In this document: positions 9,056-21,174 of the stretch, piece after piece
Layout: each line of letters starts with the position of its first letter
Numbering within the stretch: position 1 is the first letter of the stretch
From: an uncultured archaeon
Lineage (GTDB): Archaea > Halobacteriota > Methanosarcinia > Methanosarcinales > Methanoperedenaceae
Assembly (NCBI GenBank): GCA_902386085.1
Contig: CABMIA010000048.1
Span: forward strand, 1-27,012
Length of the DNA stretch: 27,012 nt
Direction of reading: 5' to 3'
Position numbers and translations under genes: made by a program
The notes under the pieces: model-generated
Seen by the model: only the letters and a program-made list of their open reading frames with translations
The model's database searches: none
What the model was told of the DNA's origin: nothing

Positions 9056-9125
9056 TCGGTTTCATAGTATGTTCAAGGTATTTGCGTTTTTCGTTGTTGC
9101 GTTGTCGATATGTTCACCTGTGAAA

Positions 9126-9137
9126 ACTTTAATTTAA
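9126..9137 (+). promoter_or_regulatory. Candidate TATA box of the 9159 gene
   Basis: The AT-rich stretch actttaatttaa is centred about 27 bp before the ATG at 9159, and no Shine-Dalgarno is present. This is the spacing expected for an archaeal TATA box driving a leaderless transcript. Inferred from position and composition only. Confidence 0.35.
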
Positions 9138-9158
9138 GAAAAAGCCCTATAGCTGCTC

Positions 9159-9440
9159 ATGGACGAGAACACGGTGAACCGGACGAAAGCTGCCATTAAT
9201 GCCCTCATAGACATAGAGCAGTTGTGGATAGAGAACACGCCCAACTACAACCTCTCGACACAGGAATTGCTCATTCTCAAAAAAAGGCTTGAGCGTGCTA
9301 TGGAGAACGTCTCGAAGATCTACGAGGAAAACAAGACAAAATTAGAGGCAGCAGAGGCTGAAATAAAAAAGATGCACGAGGGCAGGAAACAGAAACAACC
9401 GGATGCTACGCAGCCCGGACATCGCACCAGGCAGATGTAG
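9159..9440 (+). CDS. Small coiled-coil protein of unknown function
   Basis: No family recognised. The 93-aa product is highly charged and helical: residues about 36-77 (LLILKKRLERAMENVSKIYE and onward) show heptad spacing of hydrophobic residues and probably form a coiled coil. The last 18 residues are polar and basic and look disordered. It stands alone between two divergent units, with a plausible TATA box upstream and no Shine-Dalgarno. GC content and codon use look like the host genes, not like the integrated element. Coding appears real from length, start context and composition; function is unknown. Confidence 0.65.
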   Translation: MDENTVNRTKAAINALIDIEQLWIENTPNYNLSTQELLILKKRLERAMENVSKIYEENKTKLEAAEAEIKKMHEGRKQKQPDATQPGHRTRQM

Positions 9441-9563
9441 AAGCCCTTTAAAAACTGCCTTAATGTTTACAGCATTTTGCGCCTGACGTTTAACATTATG
9501 AAGAGGTAAGAAAAGCACTTGAGCGCCGGGAACCCTGCGGAGGTCTTATTTATTTTTCACCTG

Positions 9564-9588
9564 CTGCCTGACCGCCTCGCTGAGGCAG
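9564..9588 (+). promoter_or_regulatory. Hairpin in the leader of the DUF488 gene
   Basis: The arms ctgcct (9564-9569) and aggcag (9583-9588) can pair; a tighter alternative is gcctc-gct-gaggc inside the same stretch. The GAGG within the right arm (9582-9585) is the only Shine-Dalgarno-like sequence before the ATG at 9598, so folding could hide it. A TATA-like ttatttat lies about 20 bp upstream of the hairpin. The effect is inferred. Confidence 0.3.
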
Positions 9589-9597
9589 GATACATTC

Positions 9598-10170
9598 ATG
9601 AGTAATAATAAAATAATCGTGCTGACAATCGGTCATTCAACACGCTCACTCCGGGATTTCATCCGTCTCCTGAAAGCCCACGGTGTCACGAGAGTGGTTG
9701 ATATCCGCACCGTGCCGCGTTCGCGCCACAACCCTCAGTTCAACCGCGAAACGCTTCCTGATGCACTCGCTGCTGCCGTTATAGGCTACACACATATGGA
9801 CGGACTGGGAGGTCTGCGCCATCCCAGCCCTGGTTCGCAGAACACAGGCTGGCAGAACTCATCGTTCCGGGGCTTTGCCGATTATATGCAGGCGCCTGAA
9901 TTTGAAATGAACATCAAAAAGTTGATCGAGCTTGCAGAAAACGAGCGGATCGCTTTGATGTGCGCCGAAGCTTTACCCTGGCACTGCCACCGGTCTTTGA
10001 TCGCTGATGCGCTGGTTGTGAGGGATGTCAAGGTGGAACATATTATGAGCGCTTCACGTGCGCAGGGGCATACGATGACTGAGTTTGCACGGGCAGATGG
10101 CTTGCGCATTACGTACCCGCCTAAGAATGTTGGAGACGATACAGGCACAACGAAAGAAAACCCGAATTAA
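9598..10170 (+). CDS. DUF488 family protein
   Basis: Members of DUF488 are small proteins of unproven activity found in bacteria and archaea. The 190-aa product carries the family signatures in order: TIGHSTRSLRDF (about 10-21), VVDIRTVPRSRHNPQF (33-48), LGGLR (70-74) and the highly conserved CAEALPWHCHRSLIAD (122-137) with two cysteines and a His-Arg pair that look like an active or metal site. A C-terminal segment of about 40 residues is less conserved and ends in a polar tail. It is the last host gene before the integrated element. Family membership is clear; biochemical function is not known. Confidence 0.88.
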   Translation: MSNNKIIVLTIGHSTRSLRDFIRLLKAHGVTRVVDIRTVPRSRHNPQFNRETLPDALAAAVIGYTHMDGLGGLRHPSPGSQNTGWQNSSFRGFADYMQAPEFEMNIKKLIELAENERIALMCAEALPWHCHRSLIADALVVRDVKVEHIMSASRAQGHTMTEFARADGLRITYPPKNVGDDTGTTKENPN

Positions 10171-10208
10171 AAGATTCATTTTAAATATGTGCAACTCTGG
10201 AGGAAATT

Positions 10209-10256
10209 ATGGATGTTTGTCTGTATGCAAATCGTGTGAATACATTCCGTAACTGA
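10209..10256 (+). CDS. Possible 15-codon ORF with strong Shine-Dalgarno
   Basis: GGAGG at 10199-10203 lies 5 nt before an ATG that opens a frame of 15 codons (MDVCLYANRVNTFRN) closed by TGA. It sits in the 111-bp gap between the DUF488 stop and the left att site. The ribosome-binding site is better than those of most genes here, but the ORF is too short to judge by composition. It could be a leader peptide, or the start of a gene truncated long ago. Weak call. Confidence 0.2.
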   Translation: MDVCLYANRVNTFRN

Positions 10257-10281
10257 TATGAGTCTCTGAACTAAAATATGA

Positions 10282-10339
10282 AAGCCGCCGGAGGGATTTG
10301 AACCCTCGATCTGCTGATTACGAATCAGCCGCTTTGCCG
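10282..10339. repeat. attL: 58-bp copy of the 3' part of tRNA-Thr(CGU)
   Basis: Identical over 58 bp to 19574-19631. On the minus strand it holds the anticodon arm, variable loop, T arm and 3' acceptor strand of tRNA-Thr(CGU), but not the 5' acceptor strand or a complete D arm, so it is a tRNA fragment and not a gene. Identity stops at 10339/10340, where the element's own sequence begins. Together with the right copy it defines the ends of the integrated element. Confidence 0.93.
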
Positions 10340-10345
10340 CTACCG

Positions 10346-11053
10346 ATGTCGATTAATAACAAAGAGTACAGTACAGAAGAGTTTCAAAAGATATTGAAAT
10401 TGCATAACCTTTCAGATAAGACAATAAAAATTTACATGCGTTGTTATAAGCTTTTTACCGATTCTAATTTATCAGTAAATGATTATATATTAAATAATAA
10501 AAACAAGCGTAACAACATAGCCATGCTAAAGATATTGTACACTAATTTAAATATCAAATTCCCCAAAAGACATTTTAAACCCAAGTTATTACCCAATAAA
10601 GAACAGCTTAGAACCTTCTACAATGCATTACCAGAACAGTATAAACCAATGTTCCTTACATTAGCCGAAAGTGGGCTCAGAATAGGTGAGCTATTAGATG
10701 CGGATATTGATAAAACAAACAAAATGATTATTCCCAAGTCCCATAACGGTCAAACAAAACATTCATGGGTATCATTCTATGTTACCGAGTTTGATTCAAT
10801 ACCCAAAATAACAGTTGATGGACTTAATCATGTATTCTTAAAAACGTCTAAGAAATGCGGAATTAAAATAAATCCACATCTGTTACGGTCAGTATTTGCC
10901 CGTGAAATGGCTTTAAAAGGCGTTCAACCTCAATATGTGGACGCTTTTTGTGGTAGAACTCCCCAAAGCGTTCTTGCAAGGCATTATAGCGATTTCAGCC
11001 CTGAAGTTTTGAAAGAGATTTATGAAAAGGCAGGGATAAAGATATTAAGTTGA
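10346..11053 (+). CDS. SSV-type tyrosine integrase, C-terminal part Int(C)
   Basis: This is the catalytic part of a tyrosine recombinase that integrates the element at tRNA-Thr. Counting from the ATG at 10346 (235 aa), catalytic residues are R112 (ESGLRIGEL), probably K138, H178-x2-R181 (HLLR), H213 and the nucleophile Y214 (ARHY). The frame stays open leftwards through the att core, where TTG at 10298 could also start. The same frame leaves the right att core from the Int(N) ORF, so in the excised circle both join into one 293-aa protein. In the integrated state this part lacks its natural promoter, ribosome-binding site and first 56-58 codons, and is probably not functional or only poorly expressed. 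Confidence 0.9.
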   Translation: MSINNKEYSTEEFQKILKLHNLSDKTIKIYMRCYKLFTDSNLSVNDYILNNKNKRNNIAMLKILYTNLNIKFPKRHFKPKLLPNKEQLRTFYNALPEQYKPMFLTLAESGLRIGELLDADIDKTNKMIIPKSHNGQTKHSWVSFYVTEFDSIPKITVDGLNHVFLKTSKKCGIKINPHLLRSVFAREMALKGVQPQYVDAFCGRTPQSVLARHYSDFSPEVLKEIYEKAGIKILS

Positions 11054-11084
11054 AAGCAGTTAATTAGAATATTCGGTGGTTATA

Positions 11085-13169
11085 ATGAATTTCAAAAAAG
11101 TTGGATTGACTGTCTTGATGATCTTCTTGCTGGCGGGCGGGGCGGGCGCAGTGACTGAAATTGACTCATGCACCACGATTTCTGAACCTGGGTATTACTT
11201 GCTTAATAAGAGTATAATGAAAAATTCAGATTGCATTTATATAAACTCAAGCAATATAATTTTTGATGGTGCTGGTTATAGTATCAATGGTGTTTCTTCG
11301 AACTTTTATGGAGTGTTTGTCTATAATTCGAGTAAAGTCCTTACAAATGTCACCGTAAAAAATCTCAATGTAAGAGATAGTAATTATGGCATTTATTATA
11401 AAAATGTACAAAATGCGAGCATCATAGACAATAATGCTTCTGAAAACATTAATGGCATATATCTGGATGATTCTAGAAACATTAGTTTAATCAACAATAT
11501 AGCTTCAAATAATCACCAAAAAGGGATTTATTCATATTGCAAAGGCATTAATTTGGATTATTCCAGAAACATAATCCTAATCAACAATACTGCTTCGAAC
11601 AATGTTGAGAAGGGCATTTATTTATATAATTCATTCAACAGTACGTTGTTATATAATATTGCTTTGAATAATCCAATAGGCATCAAATTGGAGGGTTTAG
11701 ATAACGAATTGAAAGGTTCTGCCACGCATACTTTAAGCTATAATACAGTTTCGGAGGGTTCAGATGGCATTTTCTTGGTTCTTTCAGGTGGCAGCACGCT
11801 TAATAACAACACAGCTTCATATAATCATAATAACGGTATCTATTTAAGTGATTCTGAAAAAAGCTATTTAAGTAACAATATTGCCTCTAACAACAATGGT
11901 GACTATGCTACAGGAATTGGAATATTCTTTTCTAATGATAGCAGGTTGAACAATAATATTGTTTCAAACAATTTCTATCAAGGGCTCCATATAGAACAAT
12001 CCAATAATGTCAGATTAACTAATAACATTGCTTCCAACAGTGATTACGGCATATATCTTCATTCTGCCAATAATATCACATTTAGTGGTAATAATGTTAG
12101 CAATAATAACTATGGATTCAATTCTTTCACATCTATGAACAATTCAATCTATAACAATATATTCAATAATACCATTAATTTTGCGTTTTCGGGTTATAAC
12201 GCTAACTACTGGAATACTATAAAAACAACCGGCTCAAACATCGTTGGTGGGTATTATCTGGGCGGTAACTTCTGGGCTCAACCTGACGGAAATGGATACA
12301 GTCAGAATTGCGTAGATTCAAACTCAGATGGGATATGCAATTTACCCTATACACTTGATGCAAACAATATTGATTATCTGCCACTTTCATTGAAATTCAT
12401 TTCTGATTTGATAGAGCCTACAACTTTAATTGGATTGAGTGGGACTCTTGGCGACAACAATTGGTATACTTCCGATGTTCAAGTAACTCTGACAGCAACA
12501 GATAATGAAGGTGGTTCAGGCGTTGCCAAAACAGAATATACTATTAATGGAGGAAGCTGGATTCAATATTCCGTTCCATTCACAATTTCAAATGAAGGAA
12601 CAACAACAATTCAATATAAATCGACAGATGTTGCAGGTAATGTTGAAACAGTAAAGACTCAAGATGTCAAAATTGATAAAACCACACCTGCCAGCATAAC
12701 GAACCTCACAAACATTAGCTATGCAAGCAATTATATTAACTGGACATGGACAGACCCGACAGATTTGGACTTCGACCATGTTTGGGTTTACATTGATGGC
12801 GTCTCTAATGGCACTGTCCAAAAAGGTTATCAGTTCTACAATGCAACGGACTTTGAACCCGACACCGAACATATCATCTCAACAAGAACAGTGGATACAA
12901 ATGGAAATGTAAACCAGACATGGGTTAACCATACAGTGAAAACCTCGCTTCAGTCAGTTAGATTACCTGAAACCGGCGATATAAATGGCGACGGCAAAGT
13001 AACCCTTGTAGATGCAATTTACTTGGCAAAGCATGTTCAAAAAATCAAAGGATATGAAACAATTTATGCCGATGACGATATAAACGGTGACGGGCAAGTA
13101 ACTCTTGATGATGCAATATACCTGGCAAAACACGTTGGAGGCTTCAGAGGTTATGGAAAAATTTATTAA
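11085..13169 (+). CDS. Secreted right-handed beta-helix protein with C-terminal dockerin domain
   Basis: A predicted extracellular protein of 694 aa. The ATG at 11085 was preferred over the GTG at 11076 because GGTGG at 11075-11079 is correctly spaced before it. Domains in order: signal peptide (about 1-23, hydrophobic, ending near AGA); NosD/parallel beta-helix repeats (about 50-390) with many copies of short N-rich units such as NNIASNN; an Ig-like domain of the kind with DVQVTLTATDNEGGSGV (about 445-530); a fibronectin-type domain (about 540-620); and a dockerin module (about 631-694) with two Ca-binding loops, DINGDGKVT and DINGDGQVT. Dockerins bind cohesins on other proteins, so it may dock to a surface scaffold. 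It follows the integrase by about 30 bp on the same strand. The ligand is unknown. Confidence 0.85.
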   Translation: MNFKKVGLTVLMIFLLAGGAGAVTEIDSCTTISEPGYYLLNKSIMKNSDCIYINSSNIIFDGAGYSINGVSSNFYGVFVYNSSKVLTNVTVKNLNVRDSNYGIYYKNVQNASIIDNNASENINGIYLDDSRNISLINNIASNNHQKGIYSYCKGINLDYSRNIILINNTASNNVEKGIYLYNSFNSTLLYNIALNNPIGIKLEGLDNELKGSATHTLSYNTVSEGSDGIFLVLSGGSTLNNNTASYNHNNGIYLSDSEKSYLSNNIASNNNGDYATGIGIFFSNDSRLNNNIVSNNFYQGLHIEQSNNVRLTNNIASNSDYGIYLHSANNITFSGNNVSNNNYGFNSFTSMNNSIYNNIFNNTINFAFSGYNANYWNTIKTTGSNIVGGYYLGGNFWAQPDGNGYSQNCVDSNSDGICNLPYTLDANNIDYLPLSLKFISDLIEPTTLIGLSGTLGDNNWYTSDVQVTLTATDNEGGSGVAKTEYTINGGSWIQYSVPFTISNEGTTTIQYKSTDVAGNVETVKTQDVKIDKTTPASITNLTNISYASNYINWTWTDPTDLDFDHVWVYIDGVSNGTVQKGYQFYNATDFEPDTEHIISTRTVDTNGNVNQTWVNHTVKTSLQSVRLPETGDINGDGKVTLVDAIYLAKHVQKIKGYETIYADDDINGDGQVTLDDAIYLAKHVGGFRGYGKIY

Positions 13170-13179
13170 AAGAATCTGA

Positions 13180-13407
13180 TTTCGTATCCCATACCAGCAA
13201 ATTACGATGACCAATGCAACTGGGTTCAATTCGCTGGAAGTTACTTCAGGTATATACAATCTTACTGCTGCCTACGATATAACATATTATACGAATAGTT
13301 CGGTGACAGTCTCGACTGCATCCGGCGCTGTTGTGTTGCAGGACATTGAACTTTTGAAGAGGGTGCAAGCATTACAAAAAAAATTTTTAAGCATCCTCTC
13401 AATCTGA
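13180..13407 (+). pseudogene. Remnant of a carboxypeptidase-regulatory-like surface domain
   Basis: An open stretch after the stop at 13177-13179 encodes ATGFNSLEVTSGIYNLTAAY followed by ITYYTNSSVTVSTASGAVV and QDIELL, the pattern of beta-sandwich repeats (CarboxypepD_reg/PEGA-like) common in archaeal surface proteins. It has no signal peptide, no Shine-Dalgarno before the ATG at 13207, and the reading frame decays after the QDIEL segment. It looks like the leftover of a gene fused to, or lying next to, the dockerin protein. The family match is by eye and moderately certain. Confidence 0.5.
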
Positions 13408-13413
13408 TAGATG

Positions 13414-13437
13414 CCCTGCCTTTTGAAAAGCAAGGGG
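13414..13437 (+). terminator. Imperfect hairpin downstream of the surface-protein genes
   Basis: The left arm ccctgcctttt and the right arm aaaagcaagggg can form an imperfect stem with a short loop, in the 177-bp gap before the zinc-finger gene. It may end or stabilise the upstream transcript. No long T tract follows at once, so a terminator role is only a suggestion. The rest of 13408-13584 shows no gene. Confidence 0.25.
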
Positions 13438-13584
13438 CTGTCTGTGGACGGCAAATGTTTTTACTTTACCGCAATAAAAAAGAAAAGTTTATCGCATTGT
13501 TTGATATATGACTTTAAAATTCAAAGGAATGTAGATCAGAGAGTGCAAAGCCTATAACTTCAAATTACCAAAAAGGGAAAAATA

Positions 13585-13968
13585 ATGAGTGAATATTATT
13601 GTACTAAATGTGGGATGGATGCAAATCAGTATGGTTTTTGTTCTAACTGTCAGAGTTCCAATAAAGTTGTTAAAAAATATAATCCAAATTATATTAAATT
13701 AGACAGAACGATTTTCTACGAAGGAAAAACTAAAATACCGGATGATTTTAAAGAGCTTTTGACTTGTGATTTTTGCAATATTTCTTTTGAAGATATGCCG
13801 AAGTATACCGAACATATTACAAAAAAGCACCCTGTTTGTTATGTCTGTGGAAAAAGTGTACGAAATAAAAATTGCTTAGAAAATCGTTGTACTGAGGTGA
13901 TAGTGAGATTAAAAAGAGAGTTTAGAAAAAGAGGCGGTTCATGTCCTATTTGCGGAGAAAGCTCCTAA
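13585..13968 (+). CDS. Zinc-finger protein with zinc ribbon and C2H2 finger
   Basis: No named family recognised. The 127-aa product is organised around metal ligands: a zinc ribbon (C6, C9, C19, C22), a classical C2H2 finger C61-x2-C64-x12-H77-x4-H82, a second four-Cys site (C85, C88, C97, C102) and a final CPIC pair (C120, C123). A basic helix (VRLKREFRKRGG) lies just before the last pair. The plan suggests a nucleic-acid-binding or protein-docking regulator of the element. It starts after a purine-rich sequence (aaaagggaaaa). The next gene begins 10 bp downstream, so the two are likely co-transcribed. AT-rich codon use fits the mobile element. Confidence 0.75.
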   Translation: MSEYYCTKCGMDANQYGFCSNCQSSNKVVKKYNPNYIKLDRTIFYEGKTKIPDDFKELLTCDFCNISFEDMPKYTEHITKKHPVCYVCGKSVRNKNCLENRCTEVIVRLKREFRKRGGSCPICGESS

Positions 13969-13978
13969 GCAGATATAT

Positions 13979-14377
13979 ATGATAAAAAGCATAAAACCCA
14001 AGACTGTAAAGGTTAAATCAAAAACGTATAGTTCAATTATTGAAGTGCAATACAAAACTGCCGATAAGCGAGTAAAATATCGTCGATGGACTGATGTAAA
14101 TGGGTTTATCGTTGGCTACCTGAGAGAATTCAAAGCAAGCGATTATTTAACACTTGCCACTGAATTCGATGATAAGAATAAACCACTTAATGAACTTAAG
14201 TTTATGATCGCACCACAGAAGGTCTTAGGCGAATATGAACCAGATTACAACCAAGAAGTCTGTTGCATCATTAAAGGTTCAATGGTGATAGGTCTTTATC
14301 CTTCAGAACAAACAAAAGAATGGAAAAAAGGAATAGACCTATTACAAATGTTTAAGGATGATGATTTCCCAGCTTAA
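13979..14377 (+). CDS. Hypothetical protein of the integrated element
   Basis: Not recognised. The 132-aa product starts with a lysine-rich strand region (KPKTVKVKSKTYSSIIEVQY), is mixed alpha/beta in appearance, and ends in an acidic tail (MFKDDDFPA). There is no signal peptide or membrane segment. The acidic, aromatic-ended C terminus resembles the tails that single-strand DNA-binding proteins of mobile elements use to recruit partners, but no OB-fold signature can be shown here, so this is only a thought. The gene lies 10 bp after the zinc-finger gene on the same strand. A T-rich stretch (attttttatata) follows the stop and may end the transcript; the next genes converge from the right. Confidence 0.65.
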   Translation: MIKSIKPKTVKVKSKTYSSIIEVQYKTADKRVKYRRWTDVNGFIVGYLREFKASDYLTLATEFDDKNKPLNELKFMIAPQKVLGEYEPDYNQEVCCIIKGSMVIGLYPSEQTKEWKKGIDLLQMFKDDDFPA

Positions 14378-14418
14378 AATTTTTTATATATTACCAATTA
14401 TTCTAATGAAGGAAAGGA

Positions 14419-14661
14419 TTAAAGCTCTATGATCCCTTCCTTGCTTGCTTCAATCACCCTCTCATAAAATGCCCTGTCATCACTGGTTAAGCCCTCTGGG
14501 TTCTCATTACCCTGTTTAAATTGGTCTATTGCTTCGCTTATCTTAGTCCATCTCTCAGGCGTTAAAGTGTTCACGTAGTCATAGCACCATTGAGGCGGTT
14601 CTTTTGGCTTTTCTATGGGCTTCAGGGCTTTCAGGCGTTTTTTGATACCTTTAATTTTCAT
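14419..14661 (-). CDS. Small hypothetical protein
   Basis: Not recognised. The 80-aa product has a basic N terminus (MKIKGIKKRLKALKPIEKPK), a central WCYDYVNTLTPERW segment with two tryptophans, and an acidic helical C terminus. No membrane segment. It is the last of a series of small minus-strand genes downstream of the nuclease at 15010. The gap to the next upstream stop (14730) is 68 bp and holds only a 31-codon frame overlapping this start, which I do not call. Coding is likely from length and composition. Confidence 0.6.
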   Translation of the reverse strand: MKIKGIKKRLKALKPIEKPKEPPQWCYDYVNTLTPERWTKISEAIDQFKQGNENPEGLTSDDRAFYERVIEASKEGIIEL

Positions 14662-14729
14662 ATTCTCGGTAACTGCAACAACATAAGGCTAAAAATGCTT
14701 TTCTGCCTTCATCATCCTTTTTAATGTCT

Positions 14730-14993
14730 TCATCCTGTTTTTGCATACGCATCCTCCAATTCTTCCAGTTTTTTCTCAACGTCCTCAAGTTCCGTGTCCT
14801 TTTCCATACTATGGATCGTCCTGGTAGCCTCAACGATGATTGAGTATAGCCTTGACCTATCCATAGGGCTTAATTCACTGTCATTTACTAACCTATTATT
14901 GGCATCCGTAACAAGCCCTTCCAGATATTTAACCCTCTTTTCAACACTACTGAGGGTTATTTTATAGTCGTATTCCTTCATACCGTAAACCAT
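14730..14993 (-). CDS. Small helical hypothetical protein
   Basis: Not recognised. The 87-aa product is highly charged. Residues about 14-50 and 57-83 (ATRTIHSMEKDTELEDVEKK and onward) look like two long helices that could form a coiled-coil hairpin. There is no signal peptide or catalytic motif. It starts 16 bp after the stop of the nuclease gene, so both are probably on one transcript. A second ATG at codon 5 (MKEYDYKI) is an alternative start. Confidence 0.6.
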   Translation of the reverse strand: MVYGMKEYDYKITLSSVEKRVKYLEGLVTDANNRLVNDSELSPMDRSRLYSIIVEATRTIHSMEKDTELEDVEKKLEELEDAYAKTG

Positions 14994-15009
14994 TTTTACA
15001 CTCCATATT

Positions 15010-15312
15010 TTATTTTGCGCCTGTTATCTGCATGAAATCAGCCATATCCATAACCACCAATTCGCTATGTTTGCCTTTTTCTTTGATGACCAGTAATGGC
15101 GTTTTTCCTTCGGCTTTGGCTTCATCCATCACGTCCTTAAATAATCCAGTAATCGCCCATTTCTGCCTTAGCTTGCATTCGATATAATAGCAGTCATGGA
15201 TAACATCGCCTGATGTGTGCATACTGTTACTACCACTTAGAGGATTACGTACACCACCCAGCTTTTTAGCTGCTTTTCTCTCAAGTGCCTTCCATGTGCT
15301 TCTTGATGTCAT
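15010..15312 (-). CDS. PD-(D/E)XK nuclease, Holliday-junction-resolvase-like
   Basis: A compact nuclease candidate of 100 aa. The catalytic pattern of the PD-(D/E)XK fold is visible: E11 in the first helix, D36 (TSGDV), then E45-C-K47 (YYIECKLRQ) on the next strand, followed by a helix and LLVIKEKGK and ELVVMDM strands. Order, spacing and size resemble archaeal Hjc-like resolvases and the small endonucleases of plasmids and viruses. Substrate is inferred: branched DNA produced during replication or recombination of the element would fit. It is the first of three small minus-strand genes; upstream lies the AT-rich non-coding region with an inverted repeat that probably contains its promoter. 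Confidence 0.75.
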   Translation of the reverse strand: MTSRSTWKALERKAAKKLGGVRNPLSGSNSMHTSGDVIHDCYYIECKLRQKWAITGLFKDVMDEAKAEGKTPLLVIKEKGKHSELVVMDMADFMQITGAK

Positions 15313-15635
15313 TTTTATTCATCCCATCCTATTATTTAATTCTCAAGGATTATTGTCCTTTTTGTACAATTGTTATATCAATATTGTACATTTGGGTATA
15401 AATAATTAACGCTTGGTATAATATCGCCTAAAAGCAGATTTAAAGCGTTTAAATTATCGGGAATGTTTTTTTACGTAATCTACGTGCGTATATAAATCAA
15501 ATAAGCTAATAACTTGCGTATTTACTCATACCTATCTCTATATTATATATAGAGTACTCTACTATAATCTGAGTATTTGTATGACTCTGTTTTATCTAAT
15601 TAGGTGTATTATTCCATGAATTTGCATTCCCGATG
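15313..15635. other. AT-rich non-coding region between helicase and nuclease genes
   Basis: These 323 bp hold no gene I can support. They contain an inverted repeat at 15363-15390, a TATA-like tataaata (15397-15404), a 7-bp inverted pair ctctata/tatagag (15536-15542 and 15548-15554), an overlapping 10-bp palindrome agagtactct (15551-15560), and repeated tgcgtat words (about 15485 and 15515). It must at least contain the promoter of the nuclease operon. A replication origin of the circular form is possible but unproven. Confidence 0.5.
15363..15390. promoter_or_regulatory. 8-bp inverted repeat upstream of the nuclease operon
   Basis: The arms tgtacaat (15363-15370) and attgtaca (15383-15390) are perfect reverse complements, 20 bp centre to centre (about two helical turns). 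The site lies 51-78 bp upstream of the nuclease start. The geometry suits binding of a dimeric regulator to one DNA face. Function inferred. Confidence 0.45.
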
Positions 15636-17876
15636 TTAAAAATCTTTTTTTACTACTATATCCACACGTTTATCAGACTCAGGAATCTTTTTCTTATCTT
15701 TTTTCCATTTATCCGTTTTTGCTAAAAATTCATTTACCTTTTTTTCAGCTTTGTAAAGACTACAATCAGTATCCTTTACCATAGCTTCCTTAATCTCACT
15801 GATACGCTTTTCATGTTCGAAATAGCTTTCAGGATTACATCTATCGATTAAACCTTGTCTTAAAACATTGATATGTAGGTTTATATCTTCAATTTCTTCA
15901 TACCTCAATTGACCCTTAACATCTTCAGGAACAATACCCCATACATAGATAATCTTGGGTTTACTCAATGGTCTGATTCGATAAATTGCCTGATAATGCT
16001 CATTCTCCCTTTTAATGAGTTCAATAAGGTCTGCCTTTATTTCTTCTGATACTGATCTCCCTGAATCGTCAATATATCGCTGTCTTTTGGTTCTGATATA
16101 CCTGCGCTTGCCGTCAAGATAAGGGTATTTCTTTTTATAAGGCATGAATATGCTCAGGCTACCTGTATTCATCTTTGCATTGAACCCGTAGGCTTTTCCG
16201 TCATCCATTGTAAGGGTTATCTTATCTTGGGTATCGTTGAGGGTAATTGAAATAGAATGATTTTCATCATACATTTTCATAGTCTTATTATCAGGGGTTT
16301 TTTCGATATTGGCAGTAAAGAACCAGACCACATCGGGATTTTTTACCCCATTAATATCTAATACATTCATTACAAATAACCAAACATGCTGTTTTATAGG
16401 AGTATCCCAACTAAATAAAATTTCACATAAAGATGTTTTTTCATCAAAATTATCCTTTAGATTTACAACCGCATAATCATATACTGGTCTAATGTGACCA
16501 TATTTCGGGTCTTTAGTTTTTGCGTAATTATCTGCCTCTTCATCTGTATCAAACTCGATTACCTTTGTCGATACTGAGAGGTCAGTTAAATATAATTCAT
16601 TGTGGTCATTGATTATACCGACAGGATTGACTTGATAAGTTCCCAAAAGAATCAGGACATCAAAAGTCTCAAATTCGTTTTTACCCCGCAAATCTCCATA
16701 ATGAAGAATCTTAAAACCCTCAAATTGCGATTCAATGTCCTTGAAGGTGATTATTCCAACCCTTTTACCTTTCTTGACTTGAATATTATATAAATTTTTT
16801 ACATCCTGAATGATTCCCGAAGTAATGGATGATTTGGGATACCAATACGTAGGATTAACCCTGCAAACAACACTCTCTTTATTTTGAACATGGGAATTGT
16901 ATATATTTATGTAAAAATTATTCTTAATGACAAATTCCCCACCGTAACCATTCAATAGGTCAGTAAAGAGTTCCTTATTGAATGTTGCATCCATAAGAAC
17001 AATAGGGAGAGATTCAGCTAACTCAAACAGGTTGTAAATATAGGGTTCATAGTAAGTCTTAAGAAATTTCTCATACCCATCACTTTTCTGGTAGATATTT
17101 TTCCATTTTAAAAATTCCACTGACTTGTTTATATCGCTCAATACCTTTGCTAACAAATTAAAACTTTTAGGCTCAAGGATTGATTTATTAATACCTCTTA
17201 GAAAGATGCGCCTGAGTTCTTTCAAATCGATTTCTTTAAATTGTTCTGGATTGCTTACACCGTTCATCAATTCATCCAAAATAGGTGAGTATTCAAAGCC
17301 TCTAAGAATGCTGACAGATTGCTTTACTTCGGTATCTACCAAAGCCCAAGAAAAAGTACTACAGTCCTTAGAAAATTCATCCACAAAAACCGTATCAAAA
17401 TCCGTTATGTAATGCGTTCCGATGTATGCAGAGGGAGCTAATATGATGGCTGGTTTTGTATATTTGAATTGATTTATATAATCACATTGGTCTATATAAC
17501 AAAATTTACAGAAAGAATGAATGCTTAAACCACGTTCTATCATAGTCTTTACAAAAGGGTCTTCATCCAGATAGCGTTTGCATATCTTTGTAAGCCCATA
17601 CCAATGAAGTCCTTTTAATGACATTTCTTCAAGCCTATCCGCAACCTCTTTTAAAAGGTCATGGTTCGGCGCAAAGTAAGCTATGTTTTTCTCTGGATTA
17701 TTTTTACAATATTTTATAAAAGTCTCAGTCTTACCAACTTCGGGCTGTAAAGCCAATACTGTAATTCCCTTATCGAATTTTATATCTCTTAATTCATCCC
17801 TTACATCAGGCAGGGTTTTTCCATTCAAATCTTGTTCATCGATTTTAAACGTGGTAGTTCCCTTGAGTCGTGCCAT
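15636..17876 (-). CDS. Large SF2-type helicase of the element, XPD/DinG-like cysteine pattern
   Basis: Probably the replication helicase of the element. Of 746 aa, SF2 motifs appear in order: a modified Walker A QPEVGKTET (44-52; the usual first glycine is absent), motif Ia-like YFAPNHDLLKEV (67-78), DEFS as Walker B (166-169), MDATFNKE (295-302), ITFKD (376-380), motif V-like HYGDLRGKN plus LLGTYQVNP (392-418), and motif VI-like YQAIYRIRPL (628-637). Cysteines C99, C123, C126 and C131 lie between motifs I and II, where XPD-type helicases hold an iron-sulfur cluster. About 210 residues are inserted between motifs V and VI. A lysine-rich tail follows. A strong Shine-Dalgarno (aaggggag) precedes the ATG closely. 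Helicase class is moderately sure; the cluster is inference. Confidence 0.75.
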   Translation of the reverse strand: MARLKGTTTFKIDEQDLNGKTLPDVRDELRDIKFDKGITVLALQPEVGKTETFIKYCKNNPEKNIAYFAPNHDLLKEVADRLEEMSLKGLHWYGLTKICKRYLDEDPFVKTMIERGLSIHSFCKFCYIDQCDYINQFKYTKPAIILAPSAYIGTHYITDFDTVFVDEFSKDCSTFSWALVDTEVKQSVSILRGFEYSPILDELMNGVSNPEQFKEIDLKELRRIFLRGINKSILEPKSFNLLAKVLSDINKSVEFLKWKNIYQKSDGYEKFLKTYYEPYIYNLFELAESLPIVLMDATFNKELFTDLLNGYGGEFVIKNNFYINIYNSHVQNKESVVCRVNPTYWYPKSSITSGIIQDVKNLYNIQVKKGKRVGIITFKDIESQFEGFKILHYGDLRGKNEFETFDVLILLGTYQVNPVGIINDHNELYLTDLSVSTKVIEFDTDEEADNYAKTKDPKYGHIRPVYDYAVVNLKDNFDEKTSLCEILFSWDTPIKQHVWLFVMNVLDINGVKNPDVVWFFTANIEKTPDNKTMKMYDENHSISITLNDTQDKITLTMDDGKAYGFNAKMNTGSLSIFMPYKKKYPYLDGKRRYIRTKRQRYIDDSGRSVSEEIKADLIELIKRENEHYQAIYRIRPLSKPKIIYVWGIVPEDVKGQLRYEEIEDINLHINVLRQGLIDRCNPESYFEHEKRISEIKEAMVKDTDCSLYKAEKKVNEFLAKTDKWKKDKKKIPESDKRVDIVVKKDF

Positions 17877-18072
17877 ATCTCCCCTTGATTACTTTAAGGG
17901 TTTTAAAACATGCCGTCTTGATTGACGTTTCAGAGATTCCTTTGCATTATGGTTTTACCCCCGACTTATTAGCATATTTTTACAAAGTCGAGCCTCATAA
18001 ATGCGATATAGAGCGTTATTTTTGCATAGATAATGCAATAAGACCTATCCTTTTTCACTCTCAGGATCGCAT

Positions 18073-18219
18073 CTATGGACTTGCAGATTTTTCTATCTTC
18101 TTAATGTCTATCTCTATCAGGTCGCCTTCTTTCAATGCCTCACCTTCCCAAATCTCAATTGGTATGGTAATTATATGTCTATTCCGTTTATCTTTGGGTA
18201 TTTTAACAGTGCTTTTCAT
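18073..18219 (-). CDS. AbrB/SpoVT-type DNA-binding regulator (48 aa)
   Basis: A short gene with a clear family look. The product reads MKSTVKIPKDKRNRHIITIP and continues through EALKEGDLIEIDIKKI, the swapped-hairpin pattern of AbrB-like transition regulators, which bind DNA as dimers. The ATG at 18219 lies just downstream (on the minus strand) of a TATA-like tatatatgta at about 18243-18252, so a leaderless transcript is likely. An 11-bp repeat array surrounds that TATA element and could be its operator, giving autoregulation. The helicase gene lies about 200 bp downstream on the same strand, with no other gene in the gap (17877-18072). Confidence 0.75.
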   Translation of the reverse strand: MKSTVKIPKDKRNRHIITIPIEIWEGEALKEGDLIEIDIKKIEKSASP

Positions 18220-18232
18220 CAATGGTATATGA

Positions 18233-18282
18233 GCGGTATTTACATATATATTTTACGGTATTATAACGGTATAATAACGGTA
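18233..18282. repeat. 11-bp-period direct repeats (iterons) between divergent genes
   Basis: The word acggta occurs at 18255-18260, 18266-18271 and 18277-18282, exactly 11 bp apart, and gcggta at 18233-18238 is in the same register two periods to the left. One repeat per helical turn puts all copies on one face of the DNA. The array lies between the AbrB gene and the ArdC operon and touches both predicted TATA elements. It could be an operator for cooperative binding or plasmid-type iterons; the choice is inference. Confidence 0.6.
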
Positions 18283-18285
18283 AAG

Positions 18286-18293
18286 TATAAATA
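18286..18293 (+). promoter_or_regulatory. Candidate TATA box of the ArdC operon
   Basis: The sequence tataaata directly follows the last iteron. Transcription would start near 18315, leaving a leader of about 80 nt before the ATG at 18395. That leader has a small hairpin, attcct/aggaat (18372-18389), whose right arm overlaps the GAGG Shine-Dalgarno (18383-18386). Inferred from sequence only. Confidence 0.4.
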
Positions 18294-18394
18294 GGATTAA
18301 AGCATACTATAGCATAGAGGAAAAAGAGCAAGTTGCCCCTGCGGTGCTTCTAACACCCAGAGGCGTGGCTCATTCCTGACGTGAGGAATAAGCA

Positions 18395-18547
18395 ATGACA
18401 AATAAGACTGAAATAATAAAAGCCTTTCGTGAGGCAAGAATCGCAGGGGAAAAACTGCTATCTCAGGGTAAAATAAGCTGGGAGCAATACGCAAGCACAA
18501 TGGTAGGCTTTGAGCTTACCTTAAGAGAAATGGGGGTAAACCTATGA
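18395..18547 (+). CDS. Small protein of the ArdC operon (50 aa)
   Basis: Not recognised. The product starts MTNKTEIIKAFREARIAGEK and ends LREMGVNL; it is mostly helical and carries a SWEQYASTMVGFELTLRE amphipathic segment. GAGG 8 nt upstream gives a good Shine-Dalgarno. The stop codon overlaps the ATG of the ArdC-like gene as ATGA, so the two are translationally coupled and the protein is probably made with ArdC in a fixed ratio. It might be a partner or accessory factor of ArdC; this is inferred from the coupling alone. Confidence 0.65.
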   Translation: MTNKTEIIKAFREARIAGEKLLSQGKISWEQYASTMVGFELTLREMGVNL

Positions 18548-19317
18548 ATCCCCATGTTAAAGAGGCAATGGATACGCTTCTTAAAATGTTCAATGAGGAG
18601 AATTTGCCAAAGGTTGCAATGGCAGTATTCAAGGGTAATGATATTCCCTCTGATAAATGGAGCTTCTTAAATCGCATTCTGATGTATCTTAACAATACTG
18701 AGGATGCAAGAGGCTTCAAGCAGTGGCAGCAGGTAGGCAGGTATGTTAAGAAGGATTCAAAAGCTTTCTACATTCTTGCGCCGATGTTTAAGAAAGTCAT
18801 TGAGGAAAAGACCTTAGAGGAAAAACAAATACTTGCAGGCTTTAAGGCTGTTGCAGTTTTTCGCTATGAAGATACGGAAGGCGCACCACTGATAAAAGAG
18901 AACTTCAAGGCAAATATTCCCTTTGAGTTCAACAGTATAATAAAAGAGCTTGGGCTTAAGATCGATGCTGTAAGGTTCAATGGGGCGGTTTATGGCTCAT
19001 ATAACCTCAATACAAAGGCTATAAGGCTTGCATCCCCTGATATTGAGGTATTCCTTCATGAGTTGGCGCATGCAGTAGATGACCGTTTAAACGGCTTAAA
19101 AGCAGGACAACAAAAAGACCAAGAAGTAATAGCGGAATTTTCAGCGGCAGTAATAGGACATTTAATGGGTTATAAAATCCCCTTCGGGAATGTCAAGGAA
19201 TACATAGAGCATTACAGCTTTAAAGAGCTTCTTAGCTCACTGTCGAGGATTGAAAAGGTTGTAACCTATGTGATTGAAAGAACAGGGATAAAACAGCCTA
19301 TTCCTTGTTTTGCATAG
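18544..19317 (+). CDS. ArdC-like antirestriction protein with zincin metallopeptidase domain
   Basis: ArdC proteins of plasmids and phages bind single-stranded DNA through the N-terminal domain and help incoming DNA escape restriction. The 257-aa product matches this plan: an N-terminal region with the signature GFKQWQQVGRYVKKDSKAFY (about 57-76) and a C-terminal metallopeptidase-like domain with the zinc motif H172-E-L-A-H176 and a glutamate-bearing helix EVIAEFSAAVIGHLMGY (about 194-210) that would supply the third ligand. The ATG overlaps the preceding stop (ATGA). Downstream are a 45-aa gene and the 5' part of the integrase. Both domains look intact. Whether the protease site is active is unknown. 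Confidence 0.82.
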   Translation: MNPHVKEAMDTLLKMFNEENLPKVAMAVFKGNDIPSDKWSFLNRILMYLNNTEDARGFKQWQQVGRYVKKDSKAFYILAPMFKKVIEEKTLEEKQILAGFKAVAVFRYEDTEGAPLIKENFKANIPFEFNSIIKELGLKIDAVRFNGAVYGSYNLNTKAIRLASPDIEVFLHELAHAVDDRLNGLKAGQQKDQEVIAEFSAAVIGHLMGYKIPFGNVKEYIEHYSFKELLSSLSRIEKVVTYVIERTGIKQPIPCFA

Positions 19318-19324
19318 GTGAGTT

Positions 19325-19462
19325 ATGAAAGAACCTTCCTTTTCTCAGAGGCTTAAAGCTGGATGGTCAAAAACTGATTTGATGCGTTATTATGCACTTG
19401 ATGAAAAGCAATATGATAAAGTCCTTGCATGTTTGGAAAGAATAAAGAATGAGGTTGTTTAA
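19325..19462 (+). CDS. Small protein (45 aa) between ardC-like gene and Int(N)
   Basis: Not recognised. The product, starting MKEPSFSQRLKAGWSKTDLM, is short, charged and helical; the LKAGWSKTDLMRYYALDEKQ stretch could be a helix-turn-helix-like unit, but it is too short to assign. It begins 7 bp after the ArdC stop and ends 1 bp before the Int(N) ATG, so it is packed in the same operon. The dense packing is the main evidence for coding. Confidence 0.55.
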   Translation: MKEPSFSQRLKAGWSKTDLMRYYALDEKQYDKVLACLERIKNEVV

Positions 19463-19463
19463 A

Positions 19464-19637
19464 ATGCCAAAAGTAGGATATACTTCTATTACCGTACCAA
19501 ATGATTTGTACAGTATGTTAAAAGAAGAATCAAAAAATTTAAAAATCAGTATCAGTGACTATATTTTTAATTTAAGCCGCCGGAGGGATTTGAACCCTCG
19601 ATCTGCTGATTACGAATCAGCCGCTTTGCCGAGCTAA
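19464..19637 (+). CDS. SSV-type integrase, N-terminal part Int(N), with ribbon-helix-helix-like start
   Basis: As it stands this is a 57-aa ORF. Residues 1-37 (MPKVGYTSITVPNDLYSMLK followed by EESKNLKISISDYIFNL) have the strand-helix-helix look of a ribbon-helix-helix DNA-binding unit. Residues 38-56 are the att core read on the strand opposite the tRNA (SRRRDLNPRSADYESAALP), and the frame stops one codon past the core. The same core is read in the same frame at 10283-10339, where it continues into the catalytic integrase. Excision would thus join 56 codons here to 237 there. GAGG at 19451-19454 is a suitable Shine-Dalgarno. It is probably a severed integrase start, not an independent regulator. 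Confidence 0.85.
   Translation: MPKVGYTSITVPNDLYSMLKEESKNLKISISDYIFNLSRRRDLNPRSADYESAALPS
19574..19631. repeat. attR: 58-bp core inside the intact tRNA-Thr(CGU) gene
   Basis: Identical to 10282-10339. Here the core continues into the 5' half of the tRNA (rightwards), so the gene is complete. The 3' portion of the present tRNA gene is therefore supplied by the element, while the original 3' portion remains at the left edge. Confidence 0.93.
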
Positions 19638-19648
19638 GCCACGACGGC
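19575..19648 (-). tRNA. tRNA-Thr (anticodon CGU), integration target
   Basis: The minus strand folds completely: acceptor GCCGTCG/CGGCGGC (one T-G pair), D stem GCTT/AAGC, anticodon stem GCTGA/TCAGC with loop TTCGTAA (anticodon CGT), T arm GAGGG-TTCAAAT-CCCTC, discriminator U. No intron, CCA not encoded. The T arm is identical to that of tRNA-Thr(UGU) at 2273. The element operon at 18395-19637 is transcribed toward it on the opposite strand. Confidence 0.96.
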
Positions 19649-19738
19649 AGGAAAGTCACTATATCGGTATTTTTTGCTATATAGTTTACTCAATTTTTTT
19701 ATCAATAGCAATATTTTTTAAGTATAAAACCCAATTAA

Positions 19739-20500
19739 ATGAATATGCTGATTGATATTTTAAAGATAATATTATGTACACCTTTTCTGGTTTACTCCTG
19801 TTATTCCGATATCAAGACGCGCCGCGTGACCAATAACGTTTGGCTGGTAATGCTTACAGGCGGCGTATTTTTTGTTTTGTACGATATCATGACTATCGGC
19901 ATATCATACCTTCCCCGCTTACTAATTTCAGCAGGATTAATATTCGCATTCGTATACCTCCTTTTCCAGATCGGGACTTTCGGAGGGGCTGATGCCAAAT
20001 CGCTTATCGTGTTATCCATAATCCTCCCGGCTTATCCGGAATTCCAGGCATTGGGGCATACCTTCCCCCTGAATAAACCTTTAATCGACCTTTTTGCCTT
20101 TGGGATTTTCGGAAATGCAGTTTTACTGACCATTGTAGTTCCCATCGCCCTGGCGGTTTATAACATTTCGAAAAAAGGGCTGCATATAGATAATCCGCTT
20201 TATATTTTCATAGGCTATAAGAGCAAAATTTCAAACCTTGCGAACAGGCACATCAAGATGATCCAGGATTTTGAAGAGATCGATGGTAAGGTAAGATTTT
20301 TTTTCAAGCGTGGGGGCGTGGAAATAAATGAGAAAAAAATTTCGGAGCTTAAAAACCTGAGGAAAATGGGTTTAATTACAGACGAAGTATGGGTAACCCC
20401 CGGCTTACCATTCATGATTCCTATAACCCTGGGATTTTTTGTGGCCGGGTTTTACGGCGATCTGATCTTTGAGCTGACAAAATTCCTTATTTTTAGATAA
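19739..20500 (+). CDS. A24-family prepilin/preflagellin peptidase
   Basis: A membrane aspartic protease that cleaves the class III signal peptides of archaeal pilins or archaellins. The 253-aa product has about six transmembrane helices and the two catalytic aspartates of the family: D24 in CYSDIKTRRVTN and D84 in the GxGD-type motif GGADAK. A cytoplasmic loop of about 60 residues (about 165-225, including FFKRGGVEINEKKI) separates the last helices, as in archaeal FlaK/PibD relatives. It starts the host sequence right of the element, with an AT-rich promoter region before it (19649-19738). No pilin genes are in view, so the substrate cannot be named. A second ATG at codon 3 is an alternative start. 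Confidence 0.88.
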   Translation: MNMLIDILKIILCTPFLVYSCYSDIKTRRVTNNVWLVMLTGGVFFVLYDIMTIGISYLPRLLISAGLIFAFVYLLFQIGTFGGADAKSLIVLSIILPAYPEFQALGHTFPLNKPLIDLFAFGIFGNAVLLTIVVPIALAVYNISKKGLHIDNPLYIFIGYKSKISNLANRHIKMIQDFEEIDGKVRFFFKRGGVEINEKKISELKNLRKMGLITDEVWVTPGLPFMIPITLGFFVAGFYGDLIFELTKFLIFR

Positions 20501-20529
20501 TACCACTCTAATTCTACTCTCTGACGCAT

Positions 20530-20546
20530 AAAAAAAATAAAAAATA
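20530..20546 (-). terminator. T-rich terminator of tRNA-Tyr
   Basis: On the minus strand the tRNA-Tyr 3' end is followed directly by a run rich in T (ATATTTTTTATTTTTTTT), the form of archaeal oligo-T termination signals. Confidence 0.55.
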
Positions 20547-20657
20547 TCCCGCCTCCCAGATTCGAACCGGGGACTTCGCGGTGCCTGCGCGGTATTGTGT
20601 GCAAACGCACATGAACCAAACTACAGCCGCGCACTCTAGCCACTGAGTTAAGGCGGG
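20547..20657 (-). tRNA. tRNA-Tyr (anticodon GUA) with 38-nt intron
   Basis: Exons fold as acceptor CCCGCCT/AGGCGGG, D stem ACTC/GAGT, anticodon stem CGCGG/CCGCG, T arm CCCGG-TTCGAAT-CTGGG, discriminator A. The anticodon loop CTGTAG is interrupted after position 37 by a 38-nt insertion at 20583-20620, the canonical archaeal intron site, then continues with A38. A second CCGCG inside the intron can also pair with the 5' strand, which would compete with the mature fold. CCA is not encoded. Confidence 0.9.
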
Positions 20658-20760
20658 ATTGCCTTTGAATAAGCATAAATATACTTAACCCTTTTCTTTC
20701 GCTATCTTTAAAAACGTCAACCTTTTTTAAAAAAGTCTTCAAATCCTTAAAGAAGTGATT

Positions 20761-20836
20761 TGGGGCCCGGGTCGGGATTCGAACCCGAGTCGTAGGATCC
20801 ACAGTCCCATAGGATGACCAGCTACCCCACCCAGGC
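20761..20836 (-). tRNA. tRNA-His (anticodon GUG), CCA encoded
   Basis: Acceptor GCCTGGG/CCCGGGC (one T-G pair), anticodon stem TGGGA/TCCTA with loop CTGTGGA (anticodon GTG), T arm TCGGG-TTCGAAT-CCCGA. The discriminator is C (20764), as expected for archaeal tRNA-His, and CCA follows in the DNA (20763-20761). The D stem GGGT/ATCC is regular with one G-T pair. The extra 5' G of tRNA-His is not encoded (T precedes). Confidence 0.9.
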
Positions 20837-20870
20837 ACCTTGATGGAGTAGCTTCCCAAATGTAACTGAA

Positions 20871-20978
20871 ATGGATAAAGGTTTTGATTATCATGATATC
20901 TCCGAATTCGGAGATGAGATAGAGAAAGATTTAAGCTTAATAGAGATGTTAAAGGGGCGCACGTTCACGAGGTTTTAA
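20871..20978 (+). CDS. Possible 35-aa protein between tRNA-His and tRNA-Lys
   Basis: An ATG opens a 35-codon frame, MDKGFDYHDISEFGDEIEKD, continuing through LIEMLKGRTFTRF to a TAA. The amino-acid composition is protein-like and acidic with a basic end, but the Shine-Dalgarno is poor and the frame is short. An 18-bp palindrome lies inside it. No family recognised. The remaining part of 20837-21064 shows only promoter-like AT-rich sequence. Confidence 0.3.
   Translation: MDKGFDYHDISEFGDEIEKDLSLIEMLKGRTFTRF
20898..20915. repeat. Perfect 18-bp palindrome
   Basis: atctccgaattcggagat is its own reverse complement over all 18 bases, with no spacer. It lies in the 228-bp region between the divergent tRNA-His and tRNA-Lys genes, 62 bp upstream of tRNA-His. 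It may be an operator or simply part of the 35-codon frame that covers it. Confidence 0.6.
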
Positions 20979-21064
20979 CAGAATTGCAATTTGTTAGCGA
21001 GTATTTATCTTCCCCGATTGGCATTATACGATTAGGGGAGATAGAACGAAATGAAGACAGGTTT

Positions 21065-21153
21065 GGGCTCGTAGCTCAGTCAGGCAGAGCACCGGGCTTT
21101 TATTCGATTGAAAAGATACCCGATGGTCGAGGGTTCAAATCCCCCCGAGCCCG
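21065..21153 (+). tRNA. tRNA-Lys (anticodon UUU) with short intron (about 15 nt)
   Basis: Acceptor GGGCTCG/CGAGCCC and D stem GCTC/GAGC are perfect. The anticodon loop CTTTTA (anticodon TTT) is followed by an insertion at 21103-21117, then A38 and the 3' stem strand CCCGA. Removing 15 nt gives a 74-nt tRNA. The CTTTT/AAAAG pairing across the junction could form the bulge-helix-bulge that the splicing endonuclease needs. Two mismatches remain, C27-A43 and A50-C64, so exact intron ends are not certain. rpoH starts 22 bp downstream. Confidence 0.82.
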
Positions 21154-21174
21154 TTTGCCTGGGAGATATATTGT

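What the first reader, a model, noticed from the sequence alone, without database searches (positions are those of the whole stretch)
10282..19637. Integrase gene split by tRNA integration; excision rebuilds a ribbon-helix-helix-fused recombinase
Seen in sequence: the 58-bp att core is open in the same frame at both ends. At the right edge the frame starts at 19464 and runs into the core; at the left edge it leaves the core into the catalytic domain. Joining them gives 56 + 237 = 293 residues. Known: SSV-type integrases carry attP inside their own gene, and integration separates Int(N) from Int(C). Unusual here: the N-terminal part looks like a ribbon-helix-helix DNA-binding unit, and 19 residues of the integrase are the tRNA gene read backwards. 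Routine annotation would call a CopG-like regulator and a short integrase and miss the connection.
Basis: partly seen in the sequence, partly recalled or inferred. Interest (0 to 1): 0.75.

Follow-up and report, generated by a model that had tools for sequence, protein, structure and literature searches.

The report
Self-splitting archaeal integrase with DNA-binding head
A small mobile element in a methane-oxidising archaeon cuts its own integrase gene in two when it inserts into a tRNA gene, and the piece left at one edge is a small ribbon-helix-helix DNA-binding unit that uncut relatives carry as the front end of the same enzyme.

Summary
An exact 58-bp repeat (10282-10339, 19574-19631) is the 3' part of tRNA-Thr(CGT). 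One frame runs from 19464 into the right copy; the same frame leaves the left copy into a tyrosine recombinase; joined, 293 residues. This is an SSV-type ("suicidal") integrase, a known kind; a translated att inside such proteins is known too. Not found described in the searched library: the N-terminal ribbon-helix-helix (RHH) module. Three uninterrupted relatives (289-312 aa, 45-50% identical over 98-100%) carry it fused. A profile of their first 38 residues, run on 23,618 ORFs, finds below E 0.01 only att-site Int(N) fragments, this one included. The predicted structure of one is RHH, disordered tRNA-like linker, core-binding domain, catalytic domain. A CcdA-like RHH heads other PF16795 integrases; SSV1 has another head, and 4 of 8 paired elements show no RHH. 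Two extras: relatives read the same tRNA-Thr site on the opposite strand, and a related element lies in a non-tRNA site with an 11-bp shared core, the site being uninterrupted in a sister species. Excision was not tested. Verdict: new variant of a known kind.

The parts
10282..10339 (.). left att copy: 58 bp, partial tRNA-Thr(CGT) remnant, in frame with Int(C)
10340..11053 (+). Int(C): core-binding and catalytic part of the integrase; the frame is open through the left core
   Evidence: PF16795, PF00589
11076..13169 (+). cargo: NosD/beta-helix protein with a Dockerin_1 match near its C-terminus
15010..15312 (-). Holliday-junction-resolvase-like protein of the element (PHROG match; Pfam PDDEXK_15 below cut-off)
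15636..17876 (-). 746-aa element protein, replication-like by inference only; relative in L005 (29% identity over 465 columns)
   Evidence: no Pfam hit above cut-off, no PHROG hit
18395..18547 (+). 50-aa ORF at the head of the int operon; relative in L005 (67% over 45 aa)
18544..19317 (+). ArdC-N-like protein upstream of int (Pfam below cut-off, PHROG anti-restriction match); 78% identical relative in L005
19325..19462 (+). 45-aa ORF ending 1 nt before the int start; relative in L005 (72% over 36 aa); possible accessory factor (inference)
19464..19637 (+). Int(N): RHH module (about residues 5-42) plus tRNA-derived tail
19574..19631 (.). right att copy; all but its first base lies in the intact tRNA gene
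19575..19648 (-). intact tRNA-Thr(CGT), the integration target

Best explanation
10340-19631 is a 9.3-kb integrated plasmid-like element of a Methanoperedens-type archaeon, with a suicidal (SSV-type) tyrosine integrase. On the free circle the integrase is one 293-aa protein: N-terminal RHH module, 19-residue linker encoded by the attP core (the tRNA read on its non-coding strand), core-binding domain, catalytic domain. It recombines attP with the tRNA-Thr gene, most likely at the anticodon loop, and so separates Int(N) (start codon, upstream operon, RHH) from Int(C). The RHH most likely pairs integrase protomers and may add an arm-type DNA contact, standing in for the multimerising N-terminus of SSV integrases. 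Shown by sequence: the split, the frame and the fused relatives; predicted: the folds. Inferred: crossover point, RHH function, excision.
For: Exact 58-bp att and joined frame. Three uninterrupted fused relatives. A profile from their first 38 residues, run on 23,618 ORFs from 105 sources, gives four distinct hits below E 0.01, all Int(N) fragments (L093/L095 3e-14, L091/L096 2e-5, L005 0.0018, window 0.0038); next best 0.31 and 0.8. AlphaFold2 of P0011: helices 13-26 and 30-42 confident, residues 42-57 below pLDDT 50, then further domains; the whole model matches XerA, lambda and SSV1 integrases. The window's 57 aa alone: helices 13-25 and 30-42, tail 43-57 below 50, top PDB matches mostly Arc, CopG and antitoxin RHH proteins. 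Invariant R170, K196, R262, Y272 and nearly invariant R239 in a 19-row alignment (their catalytic role is recalled family knowledge). Crossover: a related element in G012 has only ACTCTTAATCC in common between its two ends, and G008 has the site uninterrupted.
Against: No reads or circular form of this element were available, so excision is untested. P0011, P0022, P0034, P0121, L005 and L095 get no RHH Pfam hit, and in the joined protein the RHH_3 score falls below its cut-off (17.1 against 21.6 bits). Foldseek E-values for the 57-aa model are weak (best 0.2), as expected for about 40 residues. Of 8 elements whose two att copies I paired, 4 show an RHH Int(N) (window, L005, L095, L019); L010 and L042 have no Pfam hit, L018 was not scanned but looks like L042, and L004 has only 10 codons open at its far end.
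Confidence: 0.9

Rival explanations
1. The 57-aa RHH is an independent regulator or antitoxin gene whose frame runs into the tRNA by accident; the integrase is complete from about 10298 or 10346.
For: RHH proteins are common on mobile elements (recalled); a TTG (10298) and an ATG (10346) lie in the Int(C) frame; many homologs are catalogued without an N-terminal part.
Against: Uninterrupted fused relatives. Of 126 integrase rows, 51 carry a recognisable tRNA-like peptide ahead of the core-binding part, as expected of split or fused suicidal integrases; in 75 none was recognised. The stand-alone relatives P0121 and P0122 carry the tRNA tail.
Confidence: 0.05
2. Fossil: the element was captured by suicidal integration, and both halves are inert relics under no selection.
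For: The review states that split halves are generally inactive, though reduced or trans activity is reported (PMC8371274, section 30 read); several Int(C) copies in sister genomes are truncated.
Against: Here both halves are stop-free, the conserved residues are present and the 58-bp att copies are identical, so this copy is recent or still recombination-competent.
Confidence: 0.3
3. Int(N) released by integration works on its own as a small RHH DNA-binding protein that represses the int operon or blocks further recombination.
For: Int(N) keeps the start codon and upstream operon. In the window three ACGGTA hexamers lie 11 bp apart just before a TATA-like box upstream of the operon (18255, 18266, 18277); 4 of 300 Markov shuffles of the element give any such triple at spacings 9-12. 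The review reports that only int(N) is transcribed for two elements of S. solfataricus P2.
Against: The triple repeat was noticed after the fact and is absent at the matching place in L005. The same review section reports no int(N) expression for integrated pSSVi. One apparent Int(N), in G015, is cut short (L111). No expression data here.
Confidence: 0.15

Closest known systems
SSV1 integrase (SSV-type, type I archaeal integrase)
   Same: attP inside the gene, att of tRNA type read on the non-coding strand (ADPPGFEPGTSGSGG), PF16795 catalytic domain
   Different: its N-terminus is PF07935, with no RHH hit
pT26-2 and pTN3 suicidal integrases of Thermococcales
   Same: split on integration; att translated inside the protein; variable att peptide; PF16795 (review PMC8371274)
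   Different: sequences not compared here; the review's main text has 0 occurrences of ribbon or RHH; [quoted passage not shown]
CcdA-headed PF16795 integrases (P0085, P0104, P0107, P0117 of unnamed source; L015 labelled Bathyarchaeota; L019 labelled Thaumarchaeota)
   Same: RHH-type head, tRNA-like stretch; PF16795 in all but L019, whose catalytic part was not scanned with Pfam
   Different: head matches PF07362 rather than RHH_3; integrase part 35-43% identical to the window (for the P rows, for L015 and L019)
Arc/CopG RHH proteins
   Same: predicted fold
   Different: free-standing regulators, not fused to a recombinase

Membership tests
Suicidal (SSV-type) integrase | attachment site lies inside the integrase reading frame | tested here: met
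   uninterrupted relatives
Suicidal (SSV-type) integrase | integration leaves Int(N) and Int(C) at opposite ends of the element, with att repeats | tested here: met
Suicidal (SSV-type) integrase | Phage_integr_3 (PF16795) catalytic domain with conserved R/K/R/Y | tested here: met
Suicidal (SSV-type) integrase | tRNA gene target left intact on integration | tested here: met
   19 of 30 other genus genomes have the tRNA and at least 200 bases of the right flank; in none of the listed matches does the left flank follow, so the left edge rests on the repeat alone
Suicidal (SSV-type) integrase | recombination activity of the full-length protein | not testable with these tools
   needs biochemistry or circle reads
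Ribbon-helix-helix superfamily (N-terminal module) | beta-alpha-alpha topology and RHH sequence signature | tested here: met
   (22.0 bits alone, cut-off 21.6; 17.1 in the joined protein); the strand itself is not assigned in the monomer models
Ribbon-helix-helix superfamily (N-terminal module) | dimerisation and major-groove DNA binding through the paired strand | not testable with these tools
   monomer prediction only
SSV1-like N-terminal domain (PF07935) | Pfam match of the N-terminal part | tested here: not met
   window Int(N) hits RHH_3 only; SSV1 hits PF07935

The most novel reading that the evidence does not exclude
Integration doubles as a switch: by cutting the gene at a tRNA-encoded disordered linker, the element turns its integrase into a free RHH DNA-binding protein that keeps the operon promoter and can repress the operon or occupy attP-type sites, so the split is regulatory rather than merely suicidal. 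In addition, the near-palindromic anticodon arm lets the lineage flip the orientation of att within the gene, both strands of the core offering one open frame.
Probability: 0.15. Interest if true: 0.75.

Novelty: new variant of a known kind. Interest (0 to 1): 0.5.

Why it matters
The N-terminal part of suicidal integrases is described as highly divergent and tied to multimerisation and site recognition (review passages); a recognisable RHH head gives it a fold and a testable job. It also warns annotators that some small CopG-like proteins next to archaeal tRNA genes are integrase fragments. The same tRNA site read in both orientations in relatives, and the insertion with an 11-bp core, give natural data on how such integrases choose and change sites.

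Tried and rejected
Chance overlap of a separate RHH gene with the tRNA: rejected on fused relatives. Viral relatives: three scans of viral contigs with the integrase gave no close relative (none; 19 two distant loci), one with the 746-aa protein gave none; P0117 against phage records gave no match, and P0011 against plasmids gave one distant integrase. PDB by sequence for the 57 aa gave nothing better than E 0.33 and no RHH. A shared operator for Int(N) in window and L005: not found. Antisense att as a single clade: the test that rejects it (p-AU 0.0004) is not usable, because unlabelled rows lie between the two labelled ones; only at least one orientation change is claimed. The 124-row tree is a quick tree, its careful search unfinished; the careful tree holds 33 rows that I chose from 126. 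Orientation labels (25 antisense, 26 sense, 75 undetermined of 126 rows) rest on recalled T-loop peptide motifs; the window and L005 were checked against located tRNA genes. dN/dS of Int(N) was not attempted, for lack of close DNA pairs.
Full report
OBSERVATION. The window lies in a 1.69-Mb, 207-contig genome, 64% complete. In 9000-21000 a 58-bp exact repeat at 10282-10339 and 19574-19631 is one of two direct-repeat families found; the other lies inside one beta-helix gene. The right copy is part of an intact tRNA-Thr(CGT), 19575-19648 minus. One frame starts at 19464, 1 nt after the stop of a 45-aa ORF, and enters the core; the same frame leaves the left core. Joined, it gives 293 codons without stop.

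WHERE IT LIVES. L005, which has both this integrase type and an RHH Int(N), is titled Candidatus Methanoperedens. It appears to be the same sequence as G013, a genome of the window's own genus (same ORF length and profile score in L005 and L062; places). I therefore take the host as Methanoperedens-like; no name is given for G000.

THE INTEGRASE. The left part hits PF16795 and PF00589; the right part alone hits PF12651 RHH_3 at 22.0 bits against a cut-off of 21.6, and at 17.1 bits within the joined protein. Of 131 database proteins found with the joined query (120 listed), three, P0011, P0022 and P0034, cover 98-100% of it in one frame. Their order is RHH-like head, then a stretch with the tRNA-like motif GSNP (the only tRNA sign in P0022 and P0034), then the integrase. 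In a motif scan of 126 rows (117 to 119 of them database proteins, the rest loci and the window), 51 show a tRNA-like peptide ahead of the core-binding part and 75 do not; many of the latter are catalogued from a start further in.

INDEPENDENT TEST OF THE HEAD. A profile built only from the first 38 residues of P0011, P0022 and P0034 was run on 23,618 ORFs of at least 25 codons from 105 sources. Four distinct ORFs came out below E 0.01: L093/L095, L091/L096, L005 and the window's Int(N); the next were at 0.31 and 0.8. All four continue into tRNA-derived residues. Two of these loci had been fetched with the window's RHH, so their presence in the set is not independent, but their likeness to the fused proteins is. 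In an order-wide search of 185 genomes with a nine-row RHH alignment, 24 genomes and 26 places matched at E 0.01; 7 places scored 1e-8 or better, 4 of which were seeds of the alignment. Of the other 3, G005:C116 has the tail seen beside tRNA-Ser in L006/L099, G065:C566 has a tRNA-like tail judged by motif only, and G005:C75 has none. Among the 19 weaker places G064:C171 has such a tail; the rest include a cut-short copy (L111), apparent sensor proteins (L112, L113) and other RHH-like or doubtful ORFs.

STRUCTURE. AlphaFold2 of P0011 (43 rows): mean pLDDT 87; two helices at 13-26 and 30-42 after an extended stretch, then residues 42-57 below 50, then helices that I read as core-binding and catalytic domains. 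Fold search of the whole model finds XerA, integron, lambda and SSV1 integrases. The window's 57 residues alone (9 rows, mean pLDDT 73.6) give helices 13-25 and 30-42 and a disordered tail 43-57. Its PDB matches are mostly Arc, CopG, AtaR, KacA and similar RHH proteins, with probabilities mostly 0.8-0.99 but E-values of 0.2 or higher (50 of 127 matches listed).

HOW GENERAL. Pfam was run on 21 N-terminal pieces or whole proteins for this question (one, ten each). An RHH-type family scores above its curated cut-off in 8: window, P0085, P0104, P0107, P0117, L015, L019, L025. It scores below in 3: P0110 and L014 (CcdA), L096 (HicB). No RHH hit in 10: P0011, P0022, P0034, P0121, L005 and L095, which are tied to the window by profile, alignment or structure instead, P0091, L010 and L042, and SSV1, which has PF07935. 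These 21 were chosen by me for having a readable N-terminal part, so they are no random sample. In one search att repeats were paired in 7 of 38 rows (several rows are one place twice, and many loci end too soon); with L095 that makes 8 elements, 4 with an RHH Int(N). So RHH is a recurrent head, not a universal one.

ORIENTATION OF THE SITE. In the window the integrase reads the non-coding strand of the tRNA, as SSV1 does. P0002, P0006 and P0014 carry (V/A)KRLIRNQQIEGSNPS(G/D)G, which is the coding strand of the same tRNA-Thr core (compare the minus-strand frame 2); this is read from protein, their DNA was not seen. L005 likewise has its tRNA-Ser(GGA) in the gene's direction, with the intact tRNA beside Int(C), while sharing the operon with the window: ArdC-like 78%, 45-aa ORF 72%, 50-aa ORF 67%. 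The window falls inside a supported group of sense-type relatives: 23 rows with 9 sense and 2 antisense, 21 rows with 9 sense and 2 antisense. At least one flip is needed; the number is not resolved. The tRNA-Thr anticodon arm is a 9-bp inverted repeat around 3 nt, which may ease flipping (inference).

CROSSOVER. In G012 (L095) a related element with an RHH Int(N) lies at the 3' end of a PadR-like gene (PadR recalled from sequence, not tested). The two ends share only ACTCTTAATCC: the query of joined flanks matches at 1-309 and 299-471, an 11-base overlap, and G008 matches 1-471 uninterrupted at 88%, its own version of the 11 bases differing at 2. The 11 bases are the anticodon loop and its edges of the att carried by the element, which resembles the tRNA-Lys(CTT) of L101; no tRNA gene was found in L095 itself. 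The off-target site is an inverted repeat, GGGATT-8-AATCCC. This agrees with the anticodon-loop overlap reported for SSV1 in the review (section 17 read). For the window, joined flanks match at 1-331 and 274-570, a 58-base overlap. 19 of 30 other genus genomes have the tRNA with at least 200 bases of the right flank, but in no listed match does the window's left flank follow, so no uninterrupted site was seen for the window itself.

LITERATURE. Searches for suicidal, split or SSV-type integrases, for ribbon-helix-helix with integrase or tyrosine recombinase, for CopG with integrase, and for Methanoperedens integrases (an open-licence library) gave no paper that I saw describing an RHH head on an integrase. 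This rests on listings plus passages of PMC8371274, PMC9608457, PMC6563490, PMC4158269, PMC6972569, PMC9674854 and PMC3293823; of PMC8371274 I read the abstract and sections 6, 9 (part 1 of 2), 17, 18, 30, 31 and 36. Primary papers such as Badel 2020, Cossu 2017 and Zhan 2015, cited in the review, were not seen, nor any supplement. PMC8371274 already lists pT26-2-type suicidal integrases with Methanosarcinales in brackets, so the host group is not new either. PMC4158269 describes RHH proteins in ArcVen-P3 beside a split SSV-like integrase, apparently as separate genes (passages).

CONCLUSION. The split is ordinary for this enzyme class; the RHH head, the opposite-strand use of one site among relatives and the insertion with an 11-bp core are the new parts.

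Noticed in passing
L095 (G012:C5), 1416-1426 and 8605-8615: A related element sits in a non-tRNA site with an 11-bp shared core; the uninterrupted site is seen in G008 (L131). Looks like a natural off-target insertion by an RHH-type suicidal integrase.
   Followed up: yes
window 18326-18371; L005 about 16064-16110: A similar hairpin-rich leader precedes the first ORF of the int operon in both elements (shuffle z -3.2 and -1.7); no Rfam match for the window stretch; its exact start pattern occurs in 2 of 31 genus genomes, in these two elements.
   Followed up: partly
window 18255-18290: Three ACGGTA hexamers 11 bp apart directly upstream of a TATA-like box of the int operon; possible operator of an RHH protein, not seen in L005.
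   Followed up: partly
window 19325-19462: 45-aa ORF coupled to the int start, 72% identical in L005; candidate recombination accessory factor.
   Followed up: no
L112, L113 (G130, G106): Long ORFs (329 and 334 codons) that look like sensor proteins start with an RHH-like segment similar to this one (MP.EGYSSTTIKTPVYD.LKK).
   Followed up: no
L004 / L100 (G005:C83): An element of about 5.3 kb with a 46-bp repeat that is the 5' part of tRNA-Arg(CCG), and no RHH Int(N) at its far end (only 10 codons open).
   Followed up: partly
L025 4764-5780: CcdA-headed integrase with no recognisable tRNA peptide, in a contig labelled Bipolaricaulota; possibly a non-suicidal form or a mis-binned archaeal contig.
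   Followed up: no
window 11076-13169: The element carries a NosD/beta-helix protein with a dockerin-like end next to Int(C), apparently cargo.
   Followed up: no
window 21064-21154: tRNA gene with an anticodon that ARAGORN could not assign; Rfam confirms a tRNA.
   Followed up: no
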